A DNA stretch of 64,000 nucleotides, taken from contig OZ026561.1 in assembly GCA_964020155.1 (NCBI GenBank), positions 2,747,047-2,811,046 on the forward strand, in the 5' to 3' direction. The position numbers and the translations under genes are program-made. The notes under the pieces are model-generated. The model had not been told where the DNA came from, made no database searches, and saw nothing but the letters and a program-made list of their open reading frames with translations. Positions within the stretch are counted from its first letter, which is position 1. Every line of letters begins with the position of its first letter. Below are positions 7,881-55,274 of this stretch, piece after piece. This DNA is from Chondrilla cf. caribensis. Lineage: Eukaryota > Porifera > Demospongiae > Chondrillida > Chondrillidae.

Positions 7881-9308
7881 TTATCACCTGATGAGGTCAA
7901 ACATCAAAGGCACCGCCTGGGCAGTAAATTTGATACTTGCTCCGCGCACGTGCGCGCAGGGACAGTATCACGTAAGCGCCCAGTTTTTACCTTAAAAGGG
8001 CAGTAATTGCAAGGTGTTATATAAGCTATTACAATTTTGCGCATTCCAAGAAATGAATATCATTATAGCAAAAAGGCGACACAACACTAGTACAGTAGAG
8101 CATCAGCAACTGAAATTTAAAGTAAAAGTTAGAAGTCAAGTAGTTCTTGAATATCAAAGCTAGTGTAGTCTTCTGTTATGCTTGGCTCCTCTATCACTGG
8201 ATTAGGTGGTGGCATGGCCATTTGGATGGTGCAATTGCTAAAACTGCAGCCTTGAAACATCACCGGCTGTGTGTGAATTGCAGGCTGCAATGACACTGGT
8301 TGCTGCAAGGGTGGTTGTTTTGGTAACTGCTCTTGATCATGCGACTTTCCTTGATACTGGCAAATCTGATTGGTTCTGTTCTGCAGTGCCTGACACACTC
8401 CATATTGCTGCTCCTCACTTATTCTCGCATACTGACGTACTCCTTCAATGGACCGATGACCACTTTTATCCATAATCAATTTTTCTGGTACGTTCTCTTG
8501 AAACATCTTGGTAATGCCATAGGCTCTCAGGCTGTAATTTGTCAACCTTCTTCCAATGCCTGCTTCTGATGCCATTGTTTTCATCAATCCAAGCAGGACA
8601 TTCTTTCCGATTGGGACAGCTGAGTACCATGTTTCCAAGGGGCTTGTTGGTGCCCTGGCTTTTGGCTTTAGATAAAATATGTCCTTTCTCTTGGCTTCTG
8701 CTGGAATTTTAGACAAGTATTTGTCAAGAAGAAGCACATGACATCTCTCAATGTCAGAACTTTCGTACTGATGTACAATTTTGTTCTCTTGCTTTAACTG
8801 CTTGAGCCCCCCTACCCTATTCTTTGAGACGAATTCGGTGTAAGTATAACGAACGAGACTCTTTCCATTGATTTTCACTACTTCCCGACTCAGCTGAGAT
8901 GGTTTGAGATTTCGATGTTCCACGCCCCCTCGAAGACAAAAATTCTTTCCATTTAAAAAAAATACACAATTGAGTAAGCCCTGGGGAGTATCTGGGTTGA
9001 GAACTCCTGTAGACCATAATTTTTCTTCATCAATGTCTGTTAATGCTTCTGTTTTGCTTGAAGAGCAACCAACACCTTCTGAATGCAATTTCCTGTACAA
9101 AGCATCTAATAAATTCTTCAAAGGAACAAACTCGCGTTACTTCATGAAATCGAAGGAACATCTCTTCTCTTCGCGGATGTGTCGCTGTAAGCCGACTAAA
9201 TAATGCTGTATTGTTTTCGGTGGGTAGCGACTCCCATCTTTCTTGCGGATTTCAGCGCTGAAACGACATAGCCACTTGCATAAATCCTTCGCGTTGTCCG
9301 TCAGAAGA
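7881..9308. mobile_element. Replacement segment carrying the Crypton-type gene
   Basis: 1428 bp in unit 1 stands where unit 3 has 756 bp of exon-bearing sequence (49433-50188). Flanks match exactly on both sides. No terminal repeats or target duplication were found. Cryptons lack TIRs, so this may be an insertion with deletion rather than a complete element. 7881-8128 is non-coding. Confidence 0.6.
8129..9308 (-). pseudogene. Crypton-type tyrosine recombinase (DUF3504), one in-frame stop
   Basis: The minus-strand frame has the DUF3504 pattern. An N-terminal part reads EIRKKDGSRYPPKTIQHYL and GLQRHIRE, then comes an in-frame TAA at 9139-9137, then 330 open codons. In the 330-codon part the catalytic pattern is visible: LRGGVEHR (Arg64), NYSLRA (Arg199), SGHRS (His222, Arg223) and VRQYAR (Tyr231). 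Known family role: DNA strand exchange by tyrosine recombinases of Crypton transposons, also domesticated in animal genes. The left end is truncated at the junction at 9308. The frame is otherwise clean, so inactivation looks recent, or the downstream frame could be expressed alone. Confidence 0.82.
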
Positions 9309-11947: not shown

Positions 11948-14900
11948 CTAATTTACTTGAAGTCTGTCCACACCATAGATGCTCTTGATATTGGTAGTGT
12001 AATTTTTGGAAAAACCACCACGTTCCATATCTTTCATCTTGGATATCACCTTGCACCAATTGTACTTGAGAACTCCTTCCCTACGTTTATTCTCACTCAT
12101 CATTTTGTCATGAATAGCACTGAAATTCATATTATCCAGAATTTCTTCCAAGTGGTCGTAGCTGTGGAAGTAAGTGATGTGAGGCCACTCATAAAAGTCC
12201 GAAAACTGCAACCAGTAGTACTCGGCTTCTGGATCAACTGATGCTTGCTTGTCAGGGCTGTAAGGGTGTAGACTGGTTGGATGGCGTTCGCCAACTTCTG
12301 GAAAGTTTTTGCAGTAATTTGAACCATGTGGTGTTCTATCAGGTCCAAAACCATGAAGCACATCACGAATGAACTTGATTGAAGGGAAAATCATGGGGAT
12401 AGACAAGGAATAGATTTCAGTTATCTTGTATGTCATCACAGCATAAGGTATAAATATAACAGCCCGATGTTTGACCAGGTCCGAAAATGTCCAACGAGGG
12501 TACAGTTTATAGGCATCAACTAGTTCATACTTCTGAACATTTTCATTCATATCTTTTGCCAGGTTTGGTCTATGATCTTTATCAACAAACATAATAATTG
12601 GTTTCTTTGTGGGAGAGTAGGGATTCCCTGCTGTGTAAAAACCACTGTAGCTATAAAGTGGCAGGGCACTCAATCCAGTGTAATAGTGAAGATATTCCAC
12701 ATCATACTTACTCTTTGCACCAAGCACAAGTCTACCCATAGAAGACAGTTTGTATAGATGTTCATTAAGCCTATCGTGCTCTGCTTGAGAACACCTGTGC
12801 AAGTCATAGCGATGAGCAGGAACCAACACTATGGTCTTGTTGAAAGGCATCCAAACCTCACAAAGTGAGGCTGGGAAAGTGCACATAAAAGCGTCCACAC
12901 TGGTAAATTTCTCGTCATTCTTGTAAAACTCAAAATTGTCACGGATCATGTTTTCAGGGATTGATTGGGGGTTTGAGCCATGGCTAAAGTCGAAATTAGT
13001 GAGAGCTGGTGAAATTCTATCATACAAAGTAATTCCCTTCATGCTATACACATGTGGATGGTTTTTGTGGACAAGCTTGCCATCAACAATGATAACAGAC
13101 TGTCCAATGGCTGAGAAGGCAGATGACATGTCAATGCGGCAACCCGAGTGTCGATCAGGTGTCAAAAATGTTAAAGAAGGAATAGAGCTGCATGTAGTAT
13201 CAACTGTCTTTTTGTCTACAATCGTGTTTGCAGACAGATCCAAAGGCAAGTGATCCAATGGTGGTGGGAATGAGGGCACGGACATGCCACTGTGTACTTC
13301 CTTCACGGCAGGGAACTTGTAACCTATATTGATCAGAAACTGGAGCCAAAGTTGAACCAACGTTACATCGTTTTTTTCAATATATTCTCTCTTATACAAT
13401 GCTATCCAGAGTTCTTCTATTCTCTCAACAATAGTGGCTCCTCGCCCCCTCCACTGACCGAGGAATATAATTAACTGTTTGCTCTTCATGTATAAGTCAT
13501 TTTCACCCTCAAAATCTTTGATGTAATTATGACCATTACGATCTTGAACAACCAGTGGACGAGATGCAAATCCAATTTTTGCACCAATGTCCCAGAAGAG
13601 ACGTTGAGCAAAATAACTACGCCAGATGTCACTCACTCGACTATTAACTGTAACTGGTAAAAATAAACCGAAGAAACCTGACGAGAAATGAAGTGTTGCC
13701 TGTGCATTGTAGGGAGTGAACACGCCGGTGGGTATGATCAAAGGTCTGTGTTCTCTGCTTCTATTGAACCAGAATGGGATTGGTTGTGTGAATCGAAATA
13801 TGGCATCAACGTCCGGTTGGTATTCTGCTAGCGATTGGAGGACAGCAATATCTGAACAGTCCACACTGACTGATGTGAGAGCAGTGTTGAAACTTTTGGC
13901 TTTCTTAATGTCATCCAACGGTAAGCCACGAGGCCATGAAGGTAAGGATGGCGCACCCAGCTTAGGATAAGGATTGTATGTTGGCCAATTGTGTTCTTTG
14001 GGAAGGAGAGCCTCCATGCTTCCGTTGACACAGTTGTGTTCACCAGGAATGGATGCATCAAGGGAAGGTGCACCAGGAGGAGCCGCACCTCTTAACCAAA
14101 ATTTCAGCAGGTTATCGTCATCAAAGTCCCAAATGATCTCAGCACCATGTAGGATGGCATACAAGAAGCCAACATTCTTACGACCAAAGTGGTTCCAAGG
14201 CAGAGCGTCTACAAAGGGAATTTTCATGGCCTCTTGTTTCTCAGGAGTTAGGTAGACTACTGCATCGTTTCCTTGCCCTGGGAACCAGCCGGTATTGTAC
14301 TCCCTCACACTCATCTTGTCGGCAACAACAACCAAGCACCATCGTTCGAGACGTACTTGGCGTCTAACGGCTTCAGAAGGTTCGAATATTGTAGTGAAGA
14401 CGGCCCACCTTTTACAAACAGGGCTATTTCCGCTGGCGTCCGAAGATCCGGCTAGGGTGATCCTGTTGCTTAAAAAACTTGAATTTCTGTTTGTCAGGAT
14501 AGTTGCGGGTCACCTTACCAGAAAAAGCTCGTCCTGTCATTTGACTATCTCTGCAGGGGCGTATCCAGGATTTGGCTCAGGGGGGTGCTGGCAGTCAGGA
14601 CACTTGCCACCCCAAAGTCCCACAATAGAGACATCTCAAGGCGTATTGCGCAATTGAGCTATGATGTCATCAAAACATGGCCACCAGCCATTTGGCCCTT
14701 ACCATTTCTTAGAGCTAGCGAAAACGAAGGGATTTCAGAACGAAAAATGGACACTTTACTCCTTCAGACCTCATTATGTTGTTCATTTAGATCAATTGTA
14801 TTTATTCTTAAAAATTAAGTACTCAGGCTATGTATTTAATTCAATTTGACAGTATTCACTGATATTAGGGGTCTGAGCCTCAGGGGGGTGCTCGAGCACC

Positions 14901-24400: not shown

Positions 24401-24954
24401 TCTGCTAAATACTGGAGTTTTCGATTGAAATAACCGATAATACCCACATTTTGTCTTTTTCTCCTTAATGTCACCAGTTATTCTTCGTAAATGAAGGGTC
24501 AGCAAACAACCGAATACATTTTATGTTGATATTTTACGACGGGAAGCGACTACATCTATTTTAAGTTTCAAAAAGTTCATTTTCGCTGTCATACGTACGG
24601 ATACAACTTTTAATGAGCCTAACCATATGGAGTTGTACCATTCATTCAAGGTCGTTCAAGGTCGTTAACACCGCTTGGGAGGACCTTTGAAGTCACGACG
24701 TGATAATGAACTAGTTACGTTATTGTAAACACTTGGCTGCGTGTTAGTGTAACCGTTCGCAAAGGCCCTATCCATGTGTAATCTTACGTCACAGATACGT
24801 CACAACCAAAACATGGCGCTGATTAGAGAGCAGAGTAAATGCGGACTAGTTCAATAGCGTCAAAGAAGAGTCGCTCCATGTTTTGCACGGTTCGATATGA
24901 TACAGGATCAGGTGGCATATACTCAAGCAGGTTAGTTACGTGTGTACGTGTTAC
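24401..24954. other. Left non-coding zone of the 7.2-kb transposon
   Basis: No convincing gene. Two ACGTCA motifs stand near 24785-24800, followed by an ATG with only 14 codons (MALIREQSKCGLVQ). CAAGCAG/GTTAGT near 24932 could be an exon end just before the hammerhead, but no matching exon was found. Confidence 0.3.
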
Positions 24955-25007
24955 GCTGTACTGATGAGGCCCAAAAGGCCGAAACGCTAGGTAATAGCGT
25001 CTACAGC
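24955..25007 (+). ncRNA. Type I hammerhead ribozyme, plus strand
   Basis: All core elements are present. Stem I is GCTGTA/TACAGC; the core is CTGATGA at 24961-24967; stem II is GGCC/GGCC with loop CAAAA; then GAAA at 24981-24984; stem III is ACGCTA/TAGCGT with loop GGTAA. The cleavage triplet GTC ends at 25001, so scission is predicted between 25001 and 25002. Every conserved core base is intact, and the minus copy differs in loops while keeping the stems. Confidence 0.93.
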
Positions 25008-25081
25008 TATAATATTATGTTATCTAAACGTGTCGAATGTATTTATGTTACGAGTGTTTGTGATGTCCTTTGTTGTATGAT

Positions 25082-25097
25082 GGTTTTTAGAAAAACC
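25082..25097. repeat. Stem-loop GGTTTTTAGAAAAACC
   Basis: Perfect hairpin about 30-45 bp past the stop of the proline-rich minus gene. The same hairpin with one change lies past the transposase stop (28083-28098), in both cases followed by CGTTTT and near a hammerhead. It is shared 3'-region sequence of the two minus-strand genes. Confidence 0.6.
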
Positions 25098-25125: not shown

Positions 25126-25565
25126 TCAGTCCTCCTCACTCCCCAACCCTGACTCACTGCTCGAGCTCGTGTCGGGATCTGGGGACGAGTCGCTGGCCGA
25201 GTCTTGCCTAACTGGCAAGACAACCCTCGGTCTCCTACAGCGGTAGCCGCCTTCAGGGACAACTTGATCGCCGTCAACGGCCGACCTTTTTCTGAGGTGG
25301 AGAAAGCACAGGCAACAATTCAATGAATGAGTTTCTGAACTATCCATGTCTTTAACTGATTAACATACCTTAAAATTTTCTGAGCATCTGGGACTCTTTG
25401 CTCTGCCCCCGATGCAGATCCCGATGACGACGATGGGGGTGGCGACGGCGAAGGAGAAGGACGAGGAGGGGGAGGCGGAGGCGGAGGAGGCGGAGGAGGA
25501 GGAGGGGGAGGGGGAGGAGGAGGAGGAGGAGGAGGAGGAGGAGGAGGAGGAGGAGGAGCACTCAT
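25126..25565 (-). CDS. Proline-rich acidic-tailed small protein (transposon gene)
   Basis: Two exons: 25565-25369, an intron with GTATGT...CTCAG borders, and 25291-25126, giving 120 codons with the frame kept across the junction (TTA AG/A AAA). The protein starts MSA, then a run of about 34 prolines coded by CCT/CCG/CCC, a Ser/Pro stretch, a basic centre (GGYRCRRPRVVLPVRQ) and an acidic tail (DTSSSSESGLGSEED). It is divergent with the plus-strand gene at 25745, the two starts being 179 bp apart. It has no known domain; possible nuclear or scaffolding accessory protein of the element. The proline run may expand or contract. Confidence 0.6.
25461..25559. repeat. GGA/GGC trinucleotide tract coding polyproline
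   Basis: Plus strand reads GGAGGAGG repeats of about 100 bp. On the minus strand it codes the proline run; the other frames give poly-Leu or poly-Ser, which are artefacts. Confidence 0.9.
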
Positions 25566-25744: not shown

Positions 25745-26329
25745 ATGCCTTACAATTTTAGAGAGAACACTCGCAAAGATTACGCTAAAATGATTAGCCT
25801 CCCCCTTCCAAGACCCGAGCGAATAGGGCATGTCCCCCCTTCCTCCCGTTCTTCCCCTCGTGCCCCTCCTACCCCTTCTACCACGCCCTCAAAGTTCGAA
25901 GCGCTAGCTTATAAGGTAGGAGAAACCTGGATACAAGTGCATACATTCATGCATCCATTATATGACACACAGTGATCCTTTTGAACATTTTTGCAGGTAA
26001 AGGAAGCGCTTCGAAGGAGACAGACGATCGTTCGTCTGTCTCTACCAATAACTCAAGAGGAGTTCCAGCTGATCTCTCTTCTGGGGACGAAGTCAAACAA
26101 TAAAGGTCGCACAAAATATACAATAGAAGATTTAGACATACTAGCTACTTTATTAGGCAATAACTGGTACGAATATAGAAAAAACGAAGAAGACATATCC
26201 GTAGTACATAGGGACTCTTTATATTTTTATTTGTATAAACATAGGGATATTGTAGAATATGGGGCATGCACACGCGGACACACATCTTTAATTTTTTGTT
26301 TTGTAAAGATAGATAAAAAGGTTAGGTAG
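25745..26329 (+). CDS. Unrecognised 167-residue protein (transposon gene)
   Basis: Two exons: 25745-25915, an 81-bp intron (GTAGGA...TTTTGCAG) and 25997-26329, phase 0, total 168 codons with stop TAG. Residues 1-57 are basic, then Pro/Ser-rich (MPYNFRENTRKDYAKMISL). The second exon is a compact mixed domain containing IVRLSLPITQEEFQLISLLG, TIEDLDILATLLGNNWYEYR and LIFCFVKIDKKVR. It has no recognised family; the second half looks folded, possibly a small DNA-binding or partner protein. Codon use and intron size resemble the other genes of the element. Confidence 0.62.
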
Positions 26330-27901: not shown

Positions 27902-28001
27902 GCCTGTATAGGACTGGTGTGTTCGGCTTATGAAGCCACCAGAATACAAAAGATGATCACCAACATTTTTTACATATGTGTAATACATGTAGAACTTGAT
28001 A

Positions 28002-28059
28002 GCTGTAGACGCCAATTCAGAGAATGGCGTTTCGGCCTTTCGGGCCTCATCAGTACAGC
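28002..28059 (-). ncRNA. Type I hammerhead ribozyme, minus strand
   Basis: Read on the minus strand from 28059: stem I GCTGTA, core CTGATGA, stem II GGCC/GGCC with loop CGAAA, GAAA, stem III ACGCCA/TGGCGT with loop TTCTCTGAAT, then C and stem I TACAGC. Predicted scission is between 28008 and 28007. Stem III differs from the plus copy by compensating changes (CGCTA/TAGCG against CGCCA/TGGCG), which supports selection for structure. It lies 104 nt past the transposase stop on the same strand. Confidence 0.93.
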
Positions 28060-28082
28060 GTGATATCCTTTGTACGAATAAT

Positions 28083-28098
28083 GGTTTTGAGAAAAACC
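28083..28098. repeat. Stem-loop GGTTTTGAGAAAAACC
   Basis: Counterpart of 25082-25097, between the transposase stop and the hammerhead. The flanking words (TCCTTTGT before, CGTTTT after) are shared too. Confidence 0.6.
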
Positions 28099-28163: not shown

Positions 28164-30778
28164 TCACTTGGTACAAGTGGTCTTGTAATGTCCCTTCTGT
28201 CCACACTTTCCACACTTGACTTCTCGTACACGAAGGAAAGCTCCTTCGTCTACGAGGTGCTCGAGCCTGTTTCCCTTCTCCATCACTTGGACGAGGGCAC
28301 GGCCAGGTTGCAAGTTCGTCGCCCTGTAATGAGTAAAGAATAGTCAAATAATGAATAAATGAATGACAAAAACAAGCATAACATATGAACAAACCTGTAG
28401 TACACTTTACTGAGGCGGTCATTATATTTTTCTAAGCCTTGCTGAGTGAAAGGCAGGAGGCTCCCGTGAAGACGTAAAAATTGTCCCACATGGGCATACA
28501 TACAATGTATGTATGGGGTAACTCGGTCACGATGGTAAATGCGACAGAAAGAGTCCACCCAATCTTTAGCCTCACACTCATAGGCTTCGATATCTTGTAC
28601 TACTGGCTGCCTATATATTGAAAAGAAGGTAAGGTAAGTAAGAGGTAATAGGTTTTAGAATATTTTGAATACTCACTTTAGCAAGTTGTTGATGGCAAGG
28701 ATCCTATCCCAGAGAGACTGGATGCAAGCAACCCGTTCACTCTGCCCATCTGGCATCACTTCAGATAGTTTGAGACCCGAAAATAGCTTTAGTTTCTCAG
28801 GTCCCGTAAAGGACCTCCACTTCAGCCTAGATCCTTCGCTATAGAAGTTCCATGCCGGGATTGATAGATTTGATACAGCAGCTTCAAATACTTGCGTCAA
28901 CTTCAGACCTCTTGAGGTGGCATCATGCTGAATTACCTCGGCAAGCAGGAGATCCACAAGGACATCGGTCACTCGAAGGAAGAGATGGAGGTTGTCTATA
29001 ACGACATTCTGCAGGGGGATAAAAGGAAAAAGAGGAGGGTTAGTAACATTGAAGGACTTCTTACTCTTTGACGATAACAACTCATTCTCTTCTGTAGTCC
29101 TGCTGTCCCATGTCTTGTCCGTGATCCATCTTGACTCCTTGGGGCATTTACACCAGATACAGGCGTACTTGCAGTTGGCAGAATCGATGCCAGTGACCAT
29201 AGATAGAAATTTATAGTCACCCCCCAGACTATAAACTATTCTGAATGTCTCATCATTGACAGTAATCACATCTGTATCCTTCATCTCATCTATCAGGTCA
29301 GCCAACGCAAGTTTCACCGACTCATACTTCTCCGAGTCACGGAAGAGGGCAATTGGATGGATACCGTCCACAGAGCCTGTGGAATTCTCCTCTAAGATGG
29401 TAAAGGCGAACACAATGCAGTGTAACCTCTTGCCAATGACTGTGCCGTCTCCGGAGAGTTTCACGTGGATACACTTGTTGGATCTGAATAACGAACAAGC
29501 CATGCATGTTATACATGTTGACATTAAGAATACTTGTAGATTGACATACCTGAAACTGGCATCTGCGGCACTGTTCCTAATTAAGTGTTCCAGTCGCACT
29601 ATGAGTCGGCCCCTAAAACTTTGCTGTACCCCATCTGTCCCCACTGGTGTTGGGCGGATGTCCCACTTGGCATTCAACTCTTGAACTCTTGTCTTCAGCT
29701 CATACAAACTTGGCAGGTTACTTAGCTTGCATAGCTCCTGGTACCCCTCGTCTGTAAAATGACATGTTACAATACATATGATGACATGCATACATACAAT
29801 TCACCATAATATATATATATACTTACTGCTAATGTTGAATCTCTCCTTTGCCAGTAGAACAGAATCTGAATCTGAGATTTTCCCTGGAGTCTCCCCAAAG
29901 TGGAGGTATTCTATCTTTTCATCTCTCTGGACTGTCATGGATAAACACTTCAGCCCAGGCTCCTCATTTTCAGCTACTTCTTCGATGGTATTGAGTAGCC
30001 TTCTCTTTCGTCTCCAAAGCTGACTTTGGGAGAGGTCCTCCAGGGGTTTTCTCTTTAGGGTACCTACAAACATTATATATCAATGATGACATGATCATAA
30101 CGTAATGTTTAACAAGCAATGCTTACCAGGTCGGGAATTTTGTGTTTTCGAAAGCTCTTCGATCTTCTCATTGGCCATCTTGAGAGACTGGGTCAATGAG
30201 TCGACCATATTCTGGAGCCGCAAGACCTCCCTGCGAAGTCTTGCCTCCTACATAGAAGCCAGACATAGATATACAGAGAATTATGTATAGAAGCCAGACA
30301 TAGATATACAGAGAATTATGTATAGAAGCCAGACATAGATATACAGAGAATTATGTATAGAAGCCAGACATAGATATACAGAGAATTATGTATAGAAACA
30401 CTAGGAACGGTAAAACTTAACAGTATTATGATGTCATGACAATATCACGATCAAGAATACCGACGCACACTACTAGAAACGCTAGTATCTAACGACTTCT
30501 TTATAACTTCTCACCTCTGATTCTACCTCGACTTGTGGAATCGCCGAGGGTATGGTCCACATACGGGAAAGAACCTTCTTCCTGGCGGGGCCTCCGAGGG
30601 GTTTCATCTCCGTTCGAATCCTCTGTGCTCTTCCCATAATCTTCTCAAACAGTGAGGAGTCAACTTCAATTCCTGCCTCCGCCGATAATCTTCTTATTGC
30701 CGATAGCCTGGCGTCTTCATCGAGGTTCTTCCCGTCGAGACTTGAAAAGAGATCAAAGATCACTTGATTACTGATCAT
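28164..30778 (-). CDS. Transposase-like protein with C-terminal CCHC zinc knuckle
   Basis: Seven exons: 30778-30515, 30247-30127, 30063-29827, 29751-29550, 29483-28677, 28610-28395 and 28323-28164; all junctions are in frame, 668 residues. Residues 1-125: a helical region and coiled coil (EARLRREVLRLQNMVDSLTQ). Core: LSGDGT (Asp287), GGDYKF (Asp364), GIDSANCKYACIWCKC (Cys379-Cys388) and VIDNLHLFLRVTD (Asp438), spaced like an RNase H-type DDE/D core with an inserted zinc site. C-terminus: CGKCGQKGHYKTTC zinc knuckle (Cys653, Cys656, His661, Cys666). I recall similar uncharacterised proteins from sponges and cnidarians; the transposase role is inferred from the TIR element around it. The ATG at 30778 sits about 60 bp after a TATA box. 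Confidence 0.78.
30248..30514. repeat. Four tandem copies of a 35-bp repeat in transposase intron 1
   Basis: Unit AGAAGCCAGACATAGATATA... of 35 bp starts at 30254, 30289, 30324 and 30359 and ends about 30393. The copies look identical, so the array is young. It makes this the longest intron of the gene, next to the coiled-coil exon. Confidence 0.9.
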
Positions 30779-30885: not shown

Positions 30886-31229
30886 GAATATTAATCGAAA
30901 TCCACTGCGTTGCCGTGTTGGCGAATACGTTGTACGATCACCGGAACGCATAACAAACGCGATCTCAAATTACATCGTAACATCCGAATACAACTCGACA
31001 CAGCAATTTGAAATACATCATGGCAATCAGTACAGGAAAAGAAAAGTGAATAAAAAGGTAAGGTGACCCAAAACTGCCAACGAGTTCTGTTATTCCGTGT
31101 TTTCTGGCTTGTCCATACATTTGAATACAGCAATCATCACCTATAGAGGTAGAATAAACAAACGAATGCAATGTAAAATTTCATATGCATGACGGATGGA
31201 AAATTATAAAACACAATAAGATGCCGAAA
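30886..31229. other. Right non-coding zone of the 7.2-kb transposon
   Basis: About 340 bp upstream of the transposase promoter. Two overlapping minus frames of 68 and 80 codons show no domain. Confidence 0.4.
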
Positions 31230-34860: not shown

Positions 34861-37680
34861 CTAATTTACTTGAAGTCTGTCCACACCATAGATGCTCTTG
34901 ATATTGGTAGTGTAATCTTTGGAAAAACCACCACGTTCCATATCTTTCATCTTGGATATCACCTTGCACCAATTGTACTTGAGAACTCTTTCCCTACGTT
35001 TATTCTCATCTAGCATTTTGTCATGAATAGCACCGAAATTCATATTATCCAGAATTTCTTCCAACTGGTCGTAGCTGTCGAAGTAAGTTATGTGAGGCCA
35101 CTCATAAAAGTCCGAAAACTGCAACCAGTAGTACTCAGCTTCTGGATCGACTGATGCTTGCTTGTCAGGGCTGTAAGGGTGTAGACTGGTTGGATGGCGT
35201 TCACCAACTTCTGGAAAGTTTTCGCAGTAATATGAACCATGTGGTGTTCTATCAAGTCCAAAACCATGAAGCACATCACGAATGAACTTGATCGAAGGGA
35301 AAATCATGGGGATAGACAAGGAATAGATTTCAGTTATCTTGTATGTCATCACAGCATAAGGTATAAATATAACAGCCCGATGTTTGACCAGGTCCGAAAA
35401 TGTCCAACGAGGGTACAGTTTATAGGCATCAACTAGTTCATACTTCTGTACAATTTCATTCATATCTTTTGCCAGGTTTGGTCTATGATCTTTAATACCA
35501 AACATAATAATTGATTTCTTTGTGGGAGAGTAGGGATTCCCTGCTGTGTAAAAACCACTGTAGCTATAAAGTGGCAGGGCACTCAATCCAGTGTAATAGT
35601 GAAGATATTCCACATCATACTTACTCTTTGCACCAAGCACAAGTCTACCCATAGAAGACAGTTTGTATAGATGTTCATTAAGCCTATCATGCTCTGCTTG
35701 AGAGCACCTGTGTAAGTCATAGCGATGAGCAGGAACCAACACTATGGTCTTGTTGAAAGGCATCCAAACCTCACAAAGTGAGGCTGGGAAAGTGCACATA
35801 AAAGCATCCACACTGGTAAATTTCTCGTCATTCTTGTAAAACTCAAAATTGTCACGGATCATGTTTTCAGGGATTGATTGGGGGTTTGAGCCATGGCTAA
35901 AGTCGAAATTAGTGAGAGCTGGTGAAATTCTATCATACAAAGTAATTCCCTTCATGCTATACACATGTGGATGGTTTTTGTGGACAAGCTTGCCATCAAC
36001 AATGATAACAGACTGTCCAATGGCTGAGAAGGCAGATGACATGTCAATGCGGCAACCCGAGTGTCGATCAGGTGTCAAAAATGTTAAAGAAGGAATAGAG
36101 CTGCATGTAGTATCAACTGTCTTTTTGTCTACAATCGTGTTTGCAGACAGATCCAAAGGCAAGTGATCCAATGGTGGTGGGAATGAGGGCACGGACATGC
36201 CACTGTGTTCTTCCTTCACGGCAGGGAACTTGTAACCTATATCGATCAGAAACTGGAGCCAAAGTTGAACCAACGTTACATCGTTTTTTTCAATATATTC
36301 TCTCTTATACAATGCTATCCAGAGTTCTTCTATTCTCTCAACAATAGTGGCTCCTTGCCCCCTCCACTGGCCGAGGAATATAATTAACTGTTTGCTCTTC
36401 ATGTATAAGTCATTTTCACCCTCAAAATCTTTGATGTAATTATGACCATTACGATTTTGAACAACCAGTGGACGAGATGCAAATCCAATTTTTGCACCAA
36501 TGTCCCAGAAGAGACGTTGAGCAAAATAACTACGCCAGATGTCACTCACTCGACTATTAACTGTAACTGGTAAAATTAAACCGAAGAAACCTGACGAGAA
36601 ATGAAGTGTTGCCTGTGCATTGTAGGGAGTAAACACGCCGGTGGGTATGATCAAAGGTCTGTGTTCTCTGCTTCTATTGAACCAGAATGGGATTGGTTGT
36701 GTGAATCGAAATATGGCATCAACGTCCGGTTGGTATTCTGCTAGCGATTGGAGGACAGCAATATCTGAACAGTCCACACTGACTGATGTGAGAGCAGTGT
36801 TGAAACTTTTGGCTTTCTTAATGTCATCCAACGGTAAGCCACGAGGCCATGAAGGTAAGGATGGCGCACCCAGCTTAGGATAAGGATTGTATGTCGGCCA
36901 ATTGTGTTCTTTGGGAAGGAGAGCCTCCATGCTTCCATTGACACAGTTGTGTTCACCAGGAATGGATGCATCAAGGGAAGGTGCACCAGGAGGAGCCGCA
37001 CCTCTTAACCAAAATTTCAGCAGGTTATCGTCATCAAAGTCCCAAATGATCTCAGCACCATGTAGGATGGCATACAAGAAACCAACATTCTTACGACCAA
37101 AGTGGTTCCAAGGCAGAGCGTCTACAAAGGGAATTTTCATGGCCTCTTGTTTCTCAGGAGTTAGGTAGACTACTGCATCGTTTCCTTGCCCTGGTAACCA
37201 GCCGGTATTGTACTCCCTCACACTCATCTTGTCGGCAACAACAACCAAGCACCATCGTTCGAGACGTATTTGGCGTCTAACGGCTTCAGAAGGTTCGAAT
37301 ATTGTAGTGACGACGGCCCACCTTTTACAAACAGGGCTATTTCCGCTGGCGTCCGAAGATCCAGGATGATTTTGCTGCTTAAAAAACTTGAATTTCTGTT
37401 TGTCAGGATAGTTGCGGGTCACCTTACCAGAAAAAGCTCGTCCTGTTATTTGACTCTCTCTGAACCTCCTATCTATTGGCATTTCTTGAGAGTCCTTTTT
37501 CTGGTCAAATTGAGAAGTTGCGCCAGTTGGTGGAACCAGGGTTCGGCTGACTCTTACGCTGCTTCGCTGATATGTGTAGTTTAGAAGGAACACAAGAAAG
37601 ACCGCGACTGAACCCGCCAAGATATAGTAATATCTTCTGTTTCCAAATAGGAATATACACTTGGTCCTTGACCTTGACAT
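34861..37680 (-). CDS. STELLO/DUF288-like Golgi glycosyltransferase, intact (unit 2)
   Basis: Single exon, 939 residues. A short basic N-terminus and one membrane segment (about 20-36, YILAGSVAVFLVFLLNY) indicate a type II membrane protein of the secretory pathway. A variable stem runs to about 118, then the DUF288 domain begins at KRWAVVTTIFEPSEAVRRQ. The motif IWDFDDDN (Asp214-Asp218) corresponds to the acidic DXD-type motif of STELLO proteins; WNHFGRKNVGFLYAILHGAE precedes it. Plant STELLO proteins act in Golgi with cellulose synthase; the animal substrate is unknown. The ATG lies 80 bp after a TATA box. Much longer C-terminal part (400-939) of unknown fold. Confidence 0.88.
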   Translation of the reverse strand: MSRSRTKCIFLFGNRRYYYILAGSVAVFLVFLLNYTYQRSSVRVSRTLVPPTGATSQFDQKKDSQEMPIDRRFRESQITGRAFSGKVTRNYPDKQKFKFFKQQNHPGSSDASGNSPVCKRWAVVTTIFEPSEAVRRQIRLERWCLVVVADKMSVREYNTGWLPGQGNDAVVYLTPEKQEAMKIPFVDALPWNHFGRKNVGFLYAILHGAEIIWDFDDDNLLKFWLRGAAPPGAPSLDASIPGEHNCVNGSMEALLPKEHNWPTYNPYPKLGAPSLPSWPRGLPLDDIKKAKSFNTALTSVSVDCSDIAVLQSLAEYQPDVDAIFRFTQPIPFWFNRSREHRPLIIPTGVFTPYNAQATLHFSSGFFGLILPVTVNSRVSDIWRSYFAQRLFWDIGAKIGFASRPLVVQNRNGHNYIKDFEGENDLYMKSKQLIIFLGQWRGQGATIVERIEELWIALYKREYIEKNDVTLVQLWLQFLIDIGYKFPAVKEEHSGMSVPSFPPPLDHLPLDLSANTIVDKKTVDTTCSSIPSLTFLTPDRHSGCRIDMSSAFSAIGQSVIIVDGKLVHKNHPHVYSMKGITLYDRISPALTNFDFSHGSNPQSIPENMIRDNFEFYKNDEKFTSVDAFMCTFPASLCEVWMPFNKTIVLVPAHRYDLHRCSQAEHDRLNEHLYKLSSMGRLVLGAKSKYDVEYLHYYTGLSALPLYSYSGFYTAGNPYSPTKKSIIMFGIKDHRPNLAKDMNEIVQKYELVDAYKLYPRWTFSDLVKHRAVIFIPYAVMTYKITEIYSLSIPMIFPSIKFIRDVLHGFGLDRTPHGSYYCENFPEVGERHPTSLHPYSPDKQASVDPEAEYYWLQFSDFYEWPHITYFDSYDQLEEILDNMNFGAIHDKMLDENKRRERVLKYNWCKVISKMKDMERGGFSKDYTTNIKSIYGVDRLQVN

Positions 37681-37759
37681 GATGTTATGTTGTCCAACAA
37701 TCGGCGATGGTCAACCTGCTATCCTTCTCACGAAATATTATCTTTCAGCAACCTCGAAT

Positions 37760-52352: not shown

Positions 52353-55196
52353 CTAATTTACTTGAAGTCTGTCCACACCATAGATGCTCTTGATATTGGT
52401 AGTGTAATCTTTGGAAAAACCACCACGTTCCATATCTTTCATCTTGGATATCACTTTGCACCAATTGTACTTGAGAACTCCTTCCCTACGTTTATTCTCA
52501 CTCATCATTTTGTCATGAATAGCACTGAAATTCATATTATCCAGAATTTCTTCCAAGTGGTCGTAGCTGTCAAAGTAAGTGATGTGAGGCCACTCATAAA
52601 AGTCCGAAAACTGCAACCAGTAGTACTCGGCTTCTGGATCAACTGATGCTTGCTTGTCAGGGCTGTAAGGGTGTAGACTGGTTGGATGGCGTTCGCCAAC
52701 TTCTGGAAAGTTTTTGCAGTAATTTGAACCATGTGGTGTTCTATCAGGTCCAAAACCATGAAGCACATCACGAATGAACTTGATCGAAGGGAAAATCATG
52801 GGGATAGACAAGGAATAGATTTCAGTTATCTTGTACGTCATCACAGCATAAGGTATAAATATAACAGTCCGATGTTTGACCAGGTCCGAAAATGTCCAAC
52901 GAGGGTACAGTTTATAGGCATCAACTATCTCATACTTCTGTACATTTTCATTCATATCTTTTGCCAGGTTTGGTCTATGATCTTTATCAGCAAACATAAT
53001 AATTGGTTTCTTTGTGGGAGAGTAGGGATTCCCTGCTGTGTAAAAACCACTGTAGCTATAAAGTGGCAGGGCACTCATTCCAGTGTAATAGTGAAGATAT
53101 TCCACATCATACTTACTCTTTGCACCAAGCACAAGTCTACCCATAGAAGACAGTTTGTATAGATGTTCATTAAGCCTATCGTGCTCTGCTTGAGAACACC
53201 TGTGCAAGTCATAGCGATGAGCAGGAACCAACACTATGGTCTTGTTGAAAGGCATCCAAACCTCACAAAGTGAGGCTGGGAAAGTGCACATAAAAGCGTC
53301 CACACTGGTAAATTTCTCGTCATTCTTGTAAAACTCAAAATTGTCACGGATCATGTTTTCAGGGATTGATTGGGGGTTTGAGCCATGGCTAAAGTCGAAA
53401 TTAGTGAGAGCTGGTGAAATTCTATCATACAAAGTAATTCCCTTCATGCTATACACATGTGGATGGTTTTTGTGGACAAGCTTGCCATCAACAATGATAA
53501 CAGACTGTCCAATGGCTGAGAAGGCAGATGACATGTCAATGCGGCAACCCGAGTGTCGATCAGGTGTCAAAAATGTTAAAGAAGGAATAGAGCTGCATGT
53601 AGTATCAACTGTCTTTTTGTCTACAATCGTGTTTGCAGACAGATCCAAAGGCAAGTGATCCAATGGTGGTGGGAATGAGGGCACGGACATGCCACTGTGT
53701 TCTTCCTTCACGGCAGGGAACTTGTAACCTATATCGATCAGAAACTGGAGCCAAAGTTGAACCAACGTTACATCGTTTTTTTCAATATATTCTCTCTTAT
53801 ACAATGCTATCCAGAGTTCTTCTATTCTCTCAACAATAGTGGCTCCTTGCCCCCTCCACTGGCCGAGGAATATAATTAACTGTTTGCTCTTCATGTATAA
53901 GTCATTTTCACCCTCAAAATCTTTGATGTAATTATGACCATTACGATCTTGAACAACCAGTGGACGAGATGCAAATCCAATTTTTGCACCAATGTCCCAG
54001 AAGAGACGTTGAGCAAAATAACTACGCCAGATGTCACTCACTCGACTATTAACTGTAACTGGTAAAAATAAACCGAAGAAACCTGACGAGAAATGAAGTG
54101 TTGCCTGTGCATTGTAGGGAGTAAACACGCCGGTGGGTATGATCAAAGGTCTGTGTTCTCTGCTTCTATTGAACCAGAATGGGATTGGTTGTGTGAATCG
54201 AAATATGGCATCAACGTCCGGTTGGTATTCTGCTAGCGATTGGAGGACAGCAATATCTGAACAGTCCACACTGACTGATGTGAGAGCAGTGTTGAAACTT
54301 TTGGCTTTCTTAATGTCATCCAACGGTAAGCCACGAGGCCATGAAGGTAAGGATGGCGCACCCAGCTTAGGATAAGGATTGTATGTTGGCCAATTGTGTT
54401 CTTTGGGAAGGAGAGCCTCCATGCTTCCGTTGACACAGTTGTGTTCACCAGGAATGGATGCATCAAGGGAAGGTGCACCAGGAGGAGCCGCACCTCTTAA
54501 CCAAAATTTCAGCAGGTTATCGTCATCAAAGTCCCAAATGATCTCAGCACCATGTAGGATGGCATACAAGAAGCCAACATTCTTGCGACCAAAGTGGTTC
54601 CAAGGCAGAGCGTCTACAAAGGGAATTTTCATGGCCTCTTGTTTCTCAGGAGTTAGGTAGACTACTGCATCGTTTCCTTGCCCTGGTAACCAGCCGGTAT
54701 TGTACTCCCTCACACTCATCTTGTCGGCAACAACAACCAAGCACCATCGTTCGAGACGTACTTGGCGTCTAACGGCTTCAGAAGGTTCGAATATTGTAGT
54801 GACGACGGCCCACCTTTTACAAACAGGGCTATTTCCGCTGGCGTCCGAAGATCTAGGGTGATCCTGTTGCTTAAAAAACTCGAATTTCCGTTTGTCAGAA
54901 TAGTTGCGGGTGACCTTACCAGAAAAATCTCGTCCCGTAATTTGACTCTCTCTGAACCTCCTATCTATAGGTACTTCTGGAGAGTCCTTTTGCCGGTCAA
55001 AATCGAATGAAGAGAATTGGCGTCGGCGAGAAATTGCACCAGCTGGTGGAACTAGGGTTCGGCTGACTCTTACGCTGCTTCGCTGATATGTGTAGTTTAG
55101 AAGGAACACAAGAAAGACCGCGACTGAACCCACCAAGATATAGTAATATCTTCTGTTTCCAAATAGGAATATACACTTGGTACTTGACCTTGACAT
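52353..55196 (-). CDS. STELLO/DUF288-like Golgi glycosyltransferase, intact (unit 3)
   Basis: Single exon, 947 residues. Same architecture as 34861-37680: membrane segment about 20-36, stem, DUF288 domain from about 126, IWDFDDDN with aspartates at 222-226. The stem has eight more residues than unit 2 (SRRRQFSSFDFDRQKDS) and several substitutions, while the C-terminal region is closer to unit 1 (HGSNYCKNF, MMSENKRREG). The mosaic pattern suggests gene conversion. Most differences are conservative, so both intact copies are probably functional. Confidence 0.88.
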   Translation of the reverse strand: MSRSSTKCIFLFGNRRYYYILVGSVAVFLVFLLNYTYQRSSVRVSRTLVPPAGAISRRRQFSSFDFDRQKDSPEVPIDRRFRESQITGRDFSGKVTRNYSDKRKFEFFKQQDHPRSSDASGNSPVCKRWAVVTTIFEPSEAVRRQVRLERWCLVVVADKMSVREYNTGWLPGQGNDAVVYLTPEKQEAMKIPFVDALPWNHFGRKNVGFLYAILHGAEIIWDFDDDNLLKFWLRGAAPPGAPSLDASIPGEHNCVNGSMEALLPKEHNWPTYNPYPKLGAPSLPSWPRGLPLDDIKKAKSFNTALTSVSVDCSDIAVLQSLAEYQPDVDAIFRFTQPIPFWFNRSREHRPLIIPTGVFTPYNAQATLHFSSGFFGLFLPVTVNSRVSDIWRSYFAQRLFWDIGAKIGFASRPLVVQDRNGHNYIKDFEGENDLYMKSKQLIIFLGQWRGQGATIVERIEELWIALYKREYIEKNDVTLVQLWLQFLIDIGYKFPAVKEEHSGMSVPSFPPPLDHLPLDLSANTIVDKKTVDTTCSSIPSLTFLTPDRHSGCRIDMSSAFSAIGQSVIIVDGKLVHKNHPHVYSMKGITLYDRISPALTNFDFSHGSNPQSIPENMIRDNFEFYKNDEKFTSVDAFMCTFPASLCEVWMPFNKTIVLVPAHRYDLHRCSQAEHDRLNEHLYKLSSMGRLVLGAKSKYDVEYLHYYTGMSALPLYSYSGFYTAGNPYSPTKKPIIMFADKDHRPNLAKDMNENVQKYEIVDAYKLYPRWTFSDLVKHRTVIFIPYAVMTYKITEIYSLSIPMIFPSIKFIRDVLHGFGPDRTPHGSNYCKNFPEVGERHPTSLHPYSPDKQASVDPEAEYYWLQFSDFYEWPHITYFDSYDHLEEILDNMNFSAIHDKMMSENKRREGVLKYNWCKVISKMKDMERGGFSKDYTTNIKSIYGVDRLQVN

Positions 55197-55274
55197 GATA
55201 TTATGTTGTCCAACAATCGGCGATGGTCAACCTGCTATCCTTCTCACGAAAATTATCTTTCAGCAACCTCGAAT

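What the first reader, a model, noticed from the sequence alone, without database searches (positions are those of the whole stretch)
28002..28059. Hammerhead ribozyme in the predicted 3' UTR of a DNA-transposon transposase gene
On the minus strand the complete type I hammerhead core is present (CTGATGA, GAAA, GTC cleavage site, three stems). It starts 104 nt after the transposase stop codon in the sense orientation. If transcription runs through, self-cleavage would separate the coding part from the poly(A) tail and could limit transposase output. Established: hammerheads occur in Penelope-like elements, retrozymes and some SINEs, and discontinuous ones in mammalian 3' UTRs. I do not recall one placed like this in a TIR DNA transposon.
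Basis: partly seen in the sequence, partly recalled or inferred. Interest (0 to 1): 0.95.

Follow-up and report, generated by a model that had tools for sequence, protein, structure and literature searches.

The report
Hammerhead ribozymes behind RAG1-like transposon genes
In this animal-like genome, jumping genes related to the antibody-recombination enzyme RAG1 often end their genes with a histone-type RNA hairpin followed by a self-cutting hammerhead ribozyme, an arrangement that could control how, and perhaps when, these genes are expressed.

Summary
A complete type I hammerhead lies on the minus strand at 28059-28002, 104 nt after the stop codon of a transposase gene; predicted cut 28008/28007. 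It belongs to a genomic family: 66 places match the core with at most 2 mismatches, 0 match the reversed pattern. The transposase family has the RAG1/Transib fold (modelled on a homologue), and its elements carry a convergent companion gene. Of 14 ends of these two genes examined, 12 have a hammerhead downstream in sense and 11 a histone-type stem-loop, always before the hammerhead. The stem-loop and a purine motif behind it match the host's own histone genes. Neighbouring opposite hammerheads are convergent in 10 of 10 pairs. So the hammerhead probably lies beyond the mRNA end, not in an ordinary poly(A) 3' UTR. Best reading: a self-cutting fail-safe terminator behind a replication-coupled, SLBP/U7-type mRNA end. 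No RNA data were available: cleavage, 3' ends and function are inferred, and other species could not be examined. Seven literature searches showed no hammerhead in a TIR DNA transposon and no histone-type end on a transposase gene.

The parts
28002..28059 (-). Type I hammerhead core (stems I, II, III, CTGATGA, GAAA, GTC); predicted cut between 28008 and 28007
27998..28067 (-). Hammerhead with outer stem I helix (GATA/TATC)
28061..28072 (-). Purine-rich motif CAAAGGATATCA, like the element behind the host's histone stem-loops; overlaps the outer strand of stem I
28083..28098 (-). Histone-type stem-loop GGTTTTTCTCAAAACC at the end of the transposase gene
   Evidence: (26.7 bits, under the cut-off of 34)
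28164..30778 (-). Gene A: RAG1/Transib-type transposase, several exons, stop TGA at 28166-28164
25745..26329 (+). Gene B: convergent companion gene, two exons; no stem-loop or hammerhead found in the 1 kb behind it
24955..25007 (+). Second, inverted type I hammerhead near the left end of the element
25082..25097 (-). Histone-type stem-loop behind a third small gene (gene X); the nearest hammerhead is antisense to it
25126..25565 (-). Gene X: small proline-rich gene read by eye from the sequence; a relative in L018
   Evidence: no homology search made
24624..24665 (+). Left end of the element, CATATGGAGTTGT..., like the ends of L033 and L034
30958..30990 (-). Probable right end, where similarity to L021 stops; its match to the left end is poor

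Best explanation
This is the 3' end module of a RAG1-type cut-and-paste transposon. Shown by sequence: the family carries a RAG1-fold transposase (gene A) and a convergent companion (gene B), and most of their 3' ends run coding end, histone-type stem-loop, purine motif, then a hammerhead in sense. Inferred: the mRNAs end without a poly(A) tail at the stem-loop, made by the host's histone machinery (SLBP, U7), so the transposon is expressed with DNA replication. Inferred: the hammerhead cuts the nascent RNA beyond that point. The cut lets 5'-3' decay reach the polymerase, stops read-through into the convergent neighbour (which would give double-stranded RNA), and detaches RNA that could reach a distant poly(A) site. 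It is a fail-safe terminator.
For: Order and sense: 12 of 14 gene A and B ends have a sense hammerhead, 11 of 14 a strict stem-loop, and in all 11 the stem-loop comes first. Host histone loci L040-L043 carry the same stem-loop and purine motif; an SLBP RNA-binding domain is encoded. The strict stem-loop consensus occurs twice in the window and never in 20 Markov controls. Opposite hammerheads within 5 kb are convergent in 10 pairs, divergent in 0. Hammerhead DNA is 83-93% identical between gene A copies of the window, L033 and L034 where a coding stretch is 63-69%. A gene B relative at C14 that lacks stem-loop and hammerhead has AATAAA 12 nt behind its stop. In human test genes an inserted hammerhead cuts co-transcriptionally and the polymerase-bound RNA is degraded 5' to 3' before termination (PMC2288634, passages).
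Against: No RNA evidence of any kind. The window's own gene B and the C14 relative have neither signal, C6 gene B no strict stem-loop, and gene X has a stem-loop but only an antisense hammerhead. Two other genes that look mobile (L036, L038/L039) and the histone genes have the stem-loop with no hammerhead found in their 3-kb loci, so the stem-loop does not need a ribozyme. For 15 of 28 exact hammerhead places I saw no gene A or B end. U7 was not found by Rfam. Several copies are near-identical, so independent cases are fewer than 14.
Confidence: 0.45

Rival explanations
1. The ribozyme itself makes the mRNA 3' end. Self-cleavage leaves a tail-less RNA ending in the hammerhead, which SLBP on the stem-loop protects, or which is trimmed back to the stem-loop, so the gene can be expressed without U7.
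For: The hammerhead follows the stem-loop closely at some ends (29 nt to the core CTGATGA in the window, 45 and 55 nt in L035 and L033). In the window the purine motif overlaps the outer strand of stem I, so U7 binding and ribozyme folding could exclude each other. U7 not found by Rfam.
Against: The purine motif is kept like that of histone genes, which is not needed if the ribozyme does the work. At other ends the hammerhead is 190-440 nt further on.
Confidence: 0.2
2. Self-restraint, the first reader's view: the mRNA is normally polyadenylated further on, and self-cleavage removes the tail and lowers transposase output.
For: Sense hammerhead in a region that would be 3' UTR. Hammerheads in mammalian Clec2 3' UTRs are known (PMC6155905, passages).
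Against: A histone-type end lies before the hammerhead. Poly(A) hexamers are few up to it, though weakly so. Gene B, which is not the transposase, has the same arrangement.
Confidence: 0.17
3. Passenger: the hammerheads are remnants of retrozyme-like or other mobile repeats that were caught in the transposon and spread with it.
For: Animal type I hammerheads mostly sit in retrozymes (PMC7229834, abstract and passages). 32 of the 66 places are a second family (GGCTC), and RF00163 finds a third. Some elements have two hammerhead types in tandem 165-281 nt apart. Short repeats with one hammerhead exist (L004, L010).
Against: Constant sense and order behind the stem-loop at diverged ends of two different genes; conservation above coding DNA; paired changes in stem III; no tandem unit of one hammerhead in the window.
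Confidence: 0.13

Closest known systems
RAGL transposons (ProtoRAG, RAG1L-RAG2L) and Transib
   Same: RAG1-fold transposase; two convergent genes, as described for RAGL (PMC7204232, passages); TIRs and, in L034, a near 5-bp duplication
   Different: Partner gene shows no RAG2-like match but a weak chromodomain-like one; ends start CATATG, not CAC; histone-type stem-loops and hammerheads behind the genes
Metazoan retrozymes, Penelope-like elements and Terminons
   Same: Type I hammerheads in mobile elements of animals (PMC7229834; PMC6431247; passages of both)
   Different: Those are retroelements; here the carrier is a DNA transposon and the hammerhead stands behind protein genes
Discontinuous hammerhead of Clec2 3' UTRs in mammals
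   Same: Sense hammerhead behind a coding region (PMC6155905, passages)
   Different: There type III with a very long helix; here compact type I, in a transposon, behind a histone-type end
Replication-dependent histone gene 3' ends (stem-loop plus downstream element)
   Same: Same stem-loop consensus and purine motif as the host's histone loci
   Different: Gene with introns, not a histone; hammerhead behind it; U-A in place of C-G at the third stem pair in most copies
Co-transcriptional cleavage terminators and test genes with an inserted hammerhead
   Same: A cut in nascent RNA beyond the gene opens it to 5'-3' decay and termination (PMC2288634, passages)
   Different: Those are human genes or constructs with poly(A) sites; here it would be a natural ribozyme, and the action is inferred

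Membership tests
Type I hammerhead ribozyme | CTGATGA, GAAA, NUH triplet and three stems, open end at stem I | tested here: met
   Rfam scores stay below cut-off
Type I hammerhead ribozyme | Self-cleavage | not testable with these tools
   needs an in vitro assay
RAG1/Transib transposase superfamily | RAG1-like RNase H-type fold | tested here: met
RAG1/Transib transposase superfamily | DDE catalytic residues | tested here: inconclusive
   D236 and D314 invariant, E580 nearly so in 40 homologues; the window has the same motifs. Their match to RAG1's catalytic residues is recalled, not checked residue by residue
RAGL (RAG1L-RAG2L) transposon | Convergent RAG2-like partner | tested here: not met
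   Partner is convergent, but Pfam shows only weak chromodomain-like matches, no kelch or PHD
RAGL (RAG1L-RAG2L) transposon | TIR starting with CAC | tested here: not met
   Ends read CATATG or CATAAG
RAGL (RAG1L-RAG2L) transposon | 5-bp target site duplication | tested here: inconclusive
   L034 GTAGA/GTGGA, 4 of 5; L033 TTATT/TTCAT, 3 of 5; none found for the window element
Histone-type 3' end | Six-pair stem-loop of histone consensus followed by a purine motif | tested here: met
   26.7 bits under a cut-off of 34, but confirmed host histone loci score only 31.6-33.2
Histone-type 3' end | Non-polyadenylated mRNA made with SLBP and U7 | not testable with these tools
   SLBP domain encoded; U7 not found by Rfam; no RNA data
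Retrozyme | Tandem 150-450 bp units each with the same hammerhead | tested here: not met
   No such unit around either window hammerhead; in some relatives tandem hammerheads occur, mostly of different types
Penelope-like element | Reverse transcriptase with hammerheads in terminal repeats | not tested
   No search for reverse transcriptase was made; the genes found beside the hammerhead are gene A and gene B

The most novel reading that the evidence does not exclude
A RAG1-family DNA transposon has built a two-part gene ending: a captured histone-type, S-phase-coupled 3' end, backed by a self-cleaving ribozyme that terminates transcription between two convergent genes. It would be a natural ribozyme terminator, and a transposon whose expression is locked to DNA replication.
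Probability: 0.4. Interest if true: 0.95.

Novelty: new variant of a known kind. Interest (0 to 1): 0.88.

Why it matters
What genomic hammerheads do outside retroelement circles is largely open. Here one stands at a defined point behind protein genes, in order after a processing signal with known biochemistry, and in many natural variants, so its role is directly testable. If right, it also shows a transposon using the histone 3' end, a way to time transposition to DNA replication. The carrier has a RAG1-type transposase and convergent genes, the layout from which V(D)J recombination is thought to have arisen (PMC7204232, passages).

Tried and rejected
Rfam alone: nothing at gathering score, so I did not rest on it. 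Chance: rejected by the reversed-pattern control. Retrozyme in the strict sense: no tandem unit in the window. Relatives elsewhere: viral contigs by protein profile gave 18 pattern matches but no relative; core pattern 0 in viral contigs and 0 in genome contigs. Those collections hold few eukaryotes, so this says little. The 88 gene A homologues (only the best-sharing 7996 candidates scored) and 24 gene B homologues come from sources whose DNA I could not read, so the 3' module in other species is untested. U7 by Rfam: none. Target duplications for the window and C1 elements: not found. The covariation test is mixed: covariation score and cells changed on both sides exceed all 500 shuffles, but the number of pair types does not (5 against 5.2). 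Other hammerhead families: of 26 loci compared with gene A/B proteins, pieces were seen only in L021, L022 and L054; of the GGCTC family only 2 loci (L072, L084) were among those 26.

Literature, search listings unless passages are named: hammerhead ribozyme + DNA transposon + transposase, 5 papers; hammerhead ribozyme + histone stem-loop, 3; histone stem-loop + transposon + transposase, 0; hammerhead ribozyme + histone mRNA + stem-loop, 9; RAG1 + Transib + hammerhead, 0; hammerhead ribozyme + terminal inverted repeat, 4; two of SLBP, transposable element, histone downstream element, 43, of which 10 were listed. None listed is on point by title or start of abstract; of these I looked into PMC6431247 only (passages). 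Searches served background. Only open-licence PMC papers are held, so absence from print is not shown.

Full report
THE OBSERVATION. On the minus strand the window holds GCTGTA CTGATGA GGCC..GGCC GAAA CGCCA..TGGC GTC TACAGC at 28059-28002. A finder that asks for all core letters and three stems returns it. Its minimum free energy and centroid structures are the hammerhead with an outer stem I helix. Rfam does not reach its cut-offs. The strength of the case is recurrence: 66 places in the 137-Mb genome match CTGATGAGGCCCNNAAGGCCGAAAC with at most 2 mismatches, 28 of them exactly, against 0 for the reversed pattern. By the letters printed there, 34 of the 66 are of the window's GGCC type and 32 of a second, GGCTC type. 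Of 30 distinct places whose DNA I read, 28 have a full core; the two that fail are the first of two hammerheads at C2 and C8:1962 (whose 29 of 31 counts one place twice). Across 13 copies, 98.6% of cells pair, against 16-41% when partners are slid; 3 pairs of stem III change on both sides. Stems I and II do not vary there. The number of pair types does not exceed the shuffles, so the covariation support is moderate.

Related elements also carry gene B, convergent with gene A. In L033 it encodes 227 aa with weak chromodomain-like matches under the cut-offs, and it has 24 homologues. The window has a diverged gene B at 25745-26329 (+), 31-32% identical. RAGL transposons are described as convergent RAG1L-RAG2L pairs with TIRs starting CAC and 5-bp duplications (PMC7204232, passages). 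Here the convergent plan is the same, the partner does not look like RAG2, and the ends start CATATG. The element in L034 (1912-9488) has ends CATATGAGGTTGTTGCGCTCATT and CATATGGGGTTATTGCGCTCATT, flanked by GTAGA and GTGGA. L033 has TTATT and TTCAT. The window element starts at 24624 and probably ends near 30990, but those two ends match poorly.

THE 3' ENDS. Between stop codon and hammerhead lies GGTTTTTCTCAAAACC (28098-28083), matched by Rfam's histone stem-loop at 26.7 bits, followed by CAAAGGATATCA. The strict consensus occurs twice in the window and not once in 20 Markov controls. Searching the whole genome with that Rfam family gave 29 matches at E 0.001 or better (75 of 16402 candidates scored, so a lower bound); 7 lie in hammerhead-bearing elements. 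Of the 8 best, which I could read, L040 to L043 hold histone genes (H3, H2A and H2B motifs). Those histone hits score 31.6-33.2 bits, also under the cut-off of 34. The window's gene A copy, at 26.7 bits, is below the list. Aligned, transposon ends read AACGGTTTTTYTNAAAACCAYY..ACAAAGATTATC and histone ends AACGGCTTTTYTNAAAGCCAYM..CAAAAGATWA; the third stem pair is C-G in histones and U-A in most transposon copies, so pairing is kept while letters differ. The histone loci have no hammerhead by the same finder.

I tabulated 13 gene ends and a 14th, C14. Gene A: 6 of 6 have a stem-loop and a sense hammerhead. Gene B: 5 of 8 have a strict stem-loop and 6 of 8 a sense hammerhead. The exceptions are the window copy (neither), C14 (neither) and C6 (no strict stem-loop). 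In all 11 ends with both, the stem-loop comes first; the first hammerhead starts 85-694 nt from the start point. For six ends (gene A at C10, C8, C1, C2; gene B at C8:1963 and C6) that start point is the end of the aligned coding region, not a proven stop codon. Copies are not independent: gene B at C7, C10 and C1 is near-identical, and so are gene A at C10 and C1, and gene A at C7 and C8:2693. At C2 the first hammerhead is degenerate and an intact one follows 282 nt on. A third small gene of the window, gene X, has a stem-loop (25097-25082) but only an antisense hammerhead next to it; it is not among the 14. Of the 28 exact hammerhead places, 13 follow a gene A or B end within 1 kb; for 15 I saw none, mostly with flanks of 1.5 kb. 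By my arithmetic, 66 places spread at random over both strands would put about 0.003 behind 14 ends within 900 nt.

Poly(A) hexamers between gene end and hammerhead: 1 in 4315 nt, about 3.2 expected from the window's rate, a weak deficit. The gene B relative at C14, without stem-loop or hammerhead, has AATAAA 12 nt behind its stop. Hammerhead DNA is 83-93% identical among the gene A copies of the window, L033 and L034, where a coding stretch of 168-169 nt is 63-69%. Adjacent hammerheads of opposite strand within 5 kb are convergent in 10 pairs and divergent in none; 4 adjacent pairs share a strand. One of the 10 pairs is of the GGCTC type.

MECHANISM. Shown: position, order, sense and conservation. 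Inferred: that the mRNA ends tail-less at the stem-loop; that the hammerhead cuts the nascent RNA beyond; that the cut promotes termination and keeps convergent transcripts apart. In human test genes a hammerhead cuts co-transcriptionally and the polymerase-bound RNA is degraded 5' to 3' before termination (PMC2288634, passages). Rivals: the ribozyme makes the mRNA end itself; it restrains transposase output; it is a passenger. In the window copy the purine motif overlaps the outer strand of stem I, so histone-type processing and ribozyme folding might compete there. The left hammerhead of the window is in the end region of the element and faces inward; its role is unclear.

WHAT IS KNOWN. Type I hammerheads of animals are mainly in retrozymes, with minimal forms in Penelope-like elements and Terminons (PMC7229834, abstract and passages; PMC6431247, passages). 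A discontinuous hammerhead lies in mammalian Clec2 3' UTRs (PMC6155905, passages). Seven searches listed no paper on a hammerhead in a TIR DNA transposon or a histone-type end on a transposase gene; the library is open-licence papers only. Each part is known and the combination is not, so I rate it a new variant of a known kind.

Noticed in passing
L038 1124-1520 and its copy L039 (C2:2446641, C18:3115022): A gene present in two copies, by eye with a ULP1-like protease part and a PHD-like finger (names recalled, no family search), has the histone stem-loop about 16 nt behind its stop codon and no hammerhead found nearby.
   Followed up: partly
L036 1265-1530 (C1:1976829): The best histone stem-loop match of the genome (34.2 bits) follows, within about 20 nt, a small open frame with CCCH-like cysteine patterns (by eye), 1.7 kb from a hammerhead pair.
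   Followed up: partly
genome-wide, e.g. L072 and L084 2631 (+), 3471 (-): A second hammerhead family with GGCTC in stem II makes up 32 of the 66 places; in the two loci read I saw no gene A or B.
   Followed up: partly
L073-L080: A third hammerhead family with a short stem III (mostly TCCTAACAAGGA in stem II), found through RF00163 with 5 places above cut-off; carrier unknown.
   Followed up: no
L033 6898 (+), L003 1672 (+), L033 5612 (+): Another hammerhead type (stem I GCACAG/CTGTGC) lies 165-281 nt from the main type in some elements; some copies look degenerate. Double cutting could release a small RNA.
   Followed up: partly
L033 against L034 and L035: Elements are mosaic: L033 shares 98% with L034 across gene B but about 70% in gene A, and 91-95% with L035 across gene A.
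   Followed up: partly
window 24624-25057; C18:3592024; C2:714578, 4685934, 5344007: The left end of the window element with its hammerhead recurs as short repeats: 434 bp at 100% identity on C18, and a shortened form at three places of C2.
   Followed up: partly
window 11948-14509, 34861-37710, 52353-55226: Three near-identical open frames of 853-957 aa in a window made of repeated segments.
   Followed up: no
window 8129-9136 (-): Tyrosine-recombinase-like protein (DUF3504 E 2.4e-35, Phage_integrase E 5e-7), possibly of a Crypton-like element.
   Followed up: no
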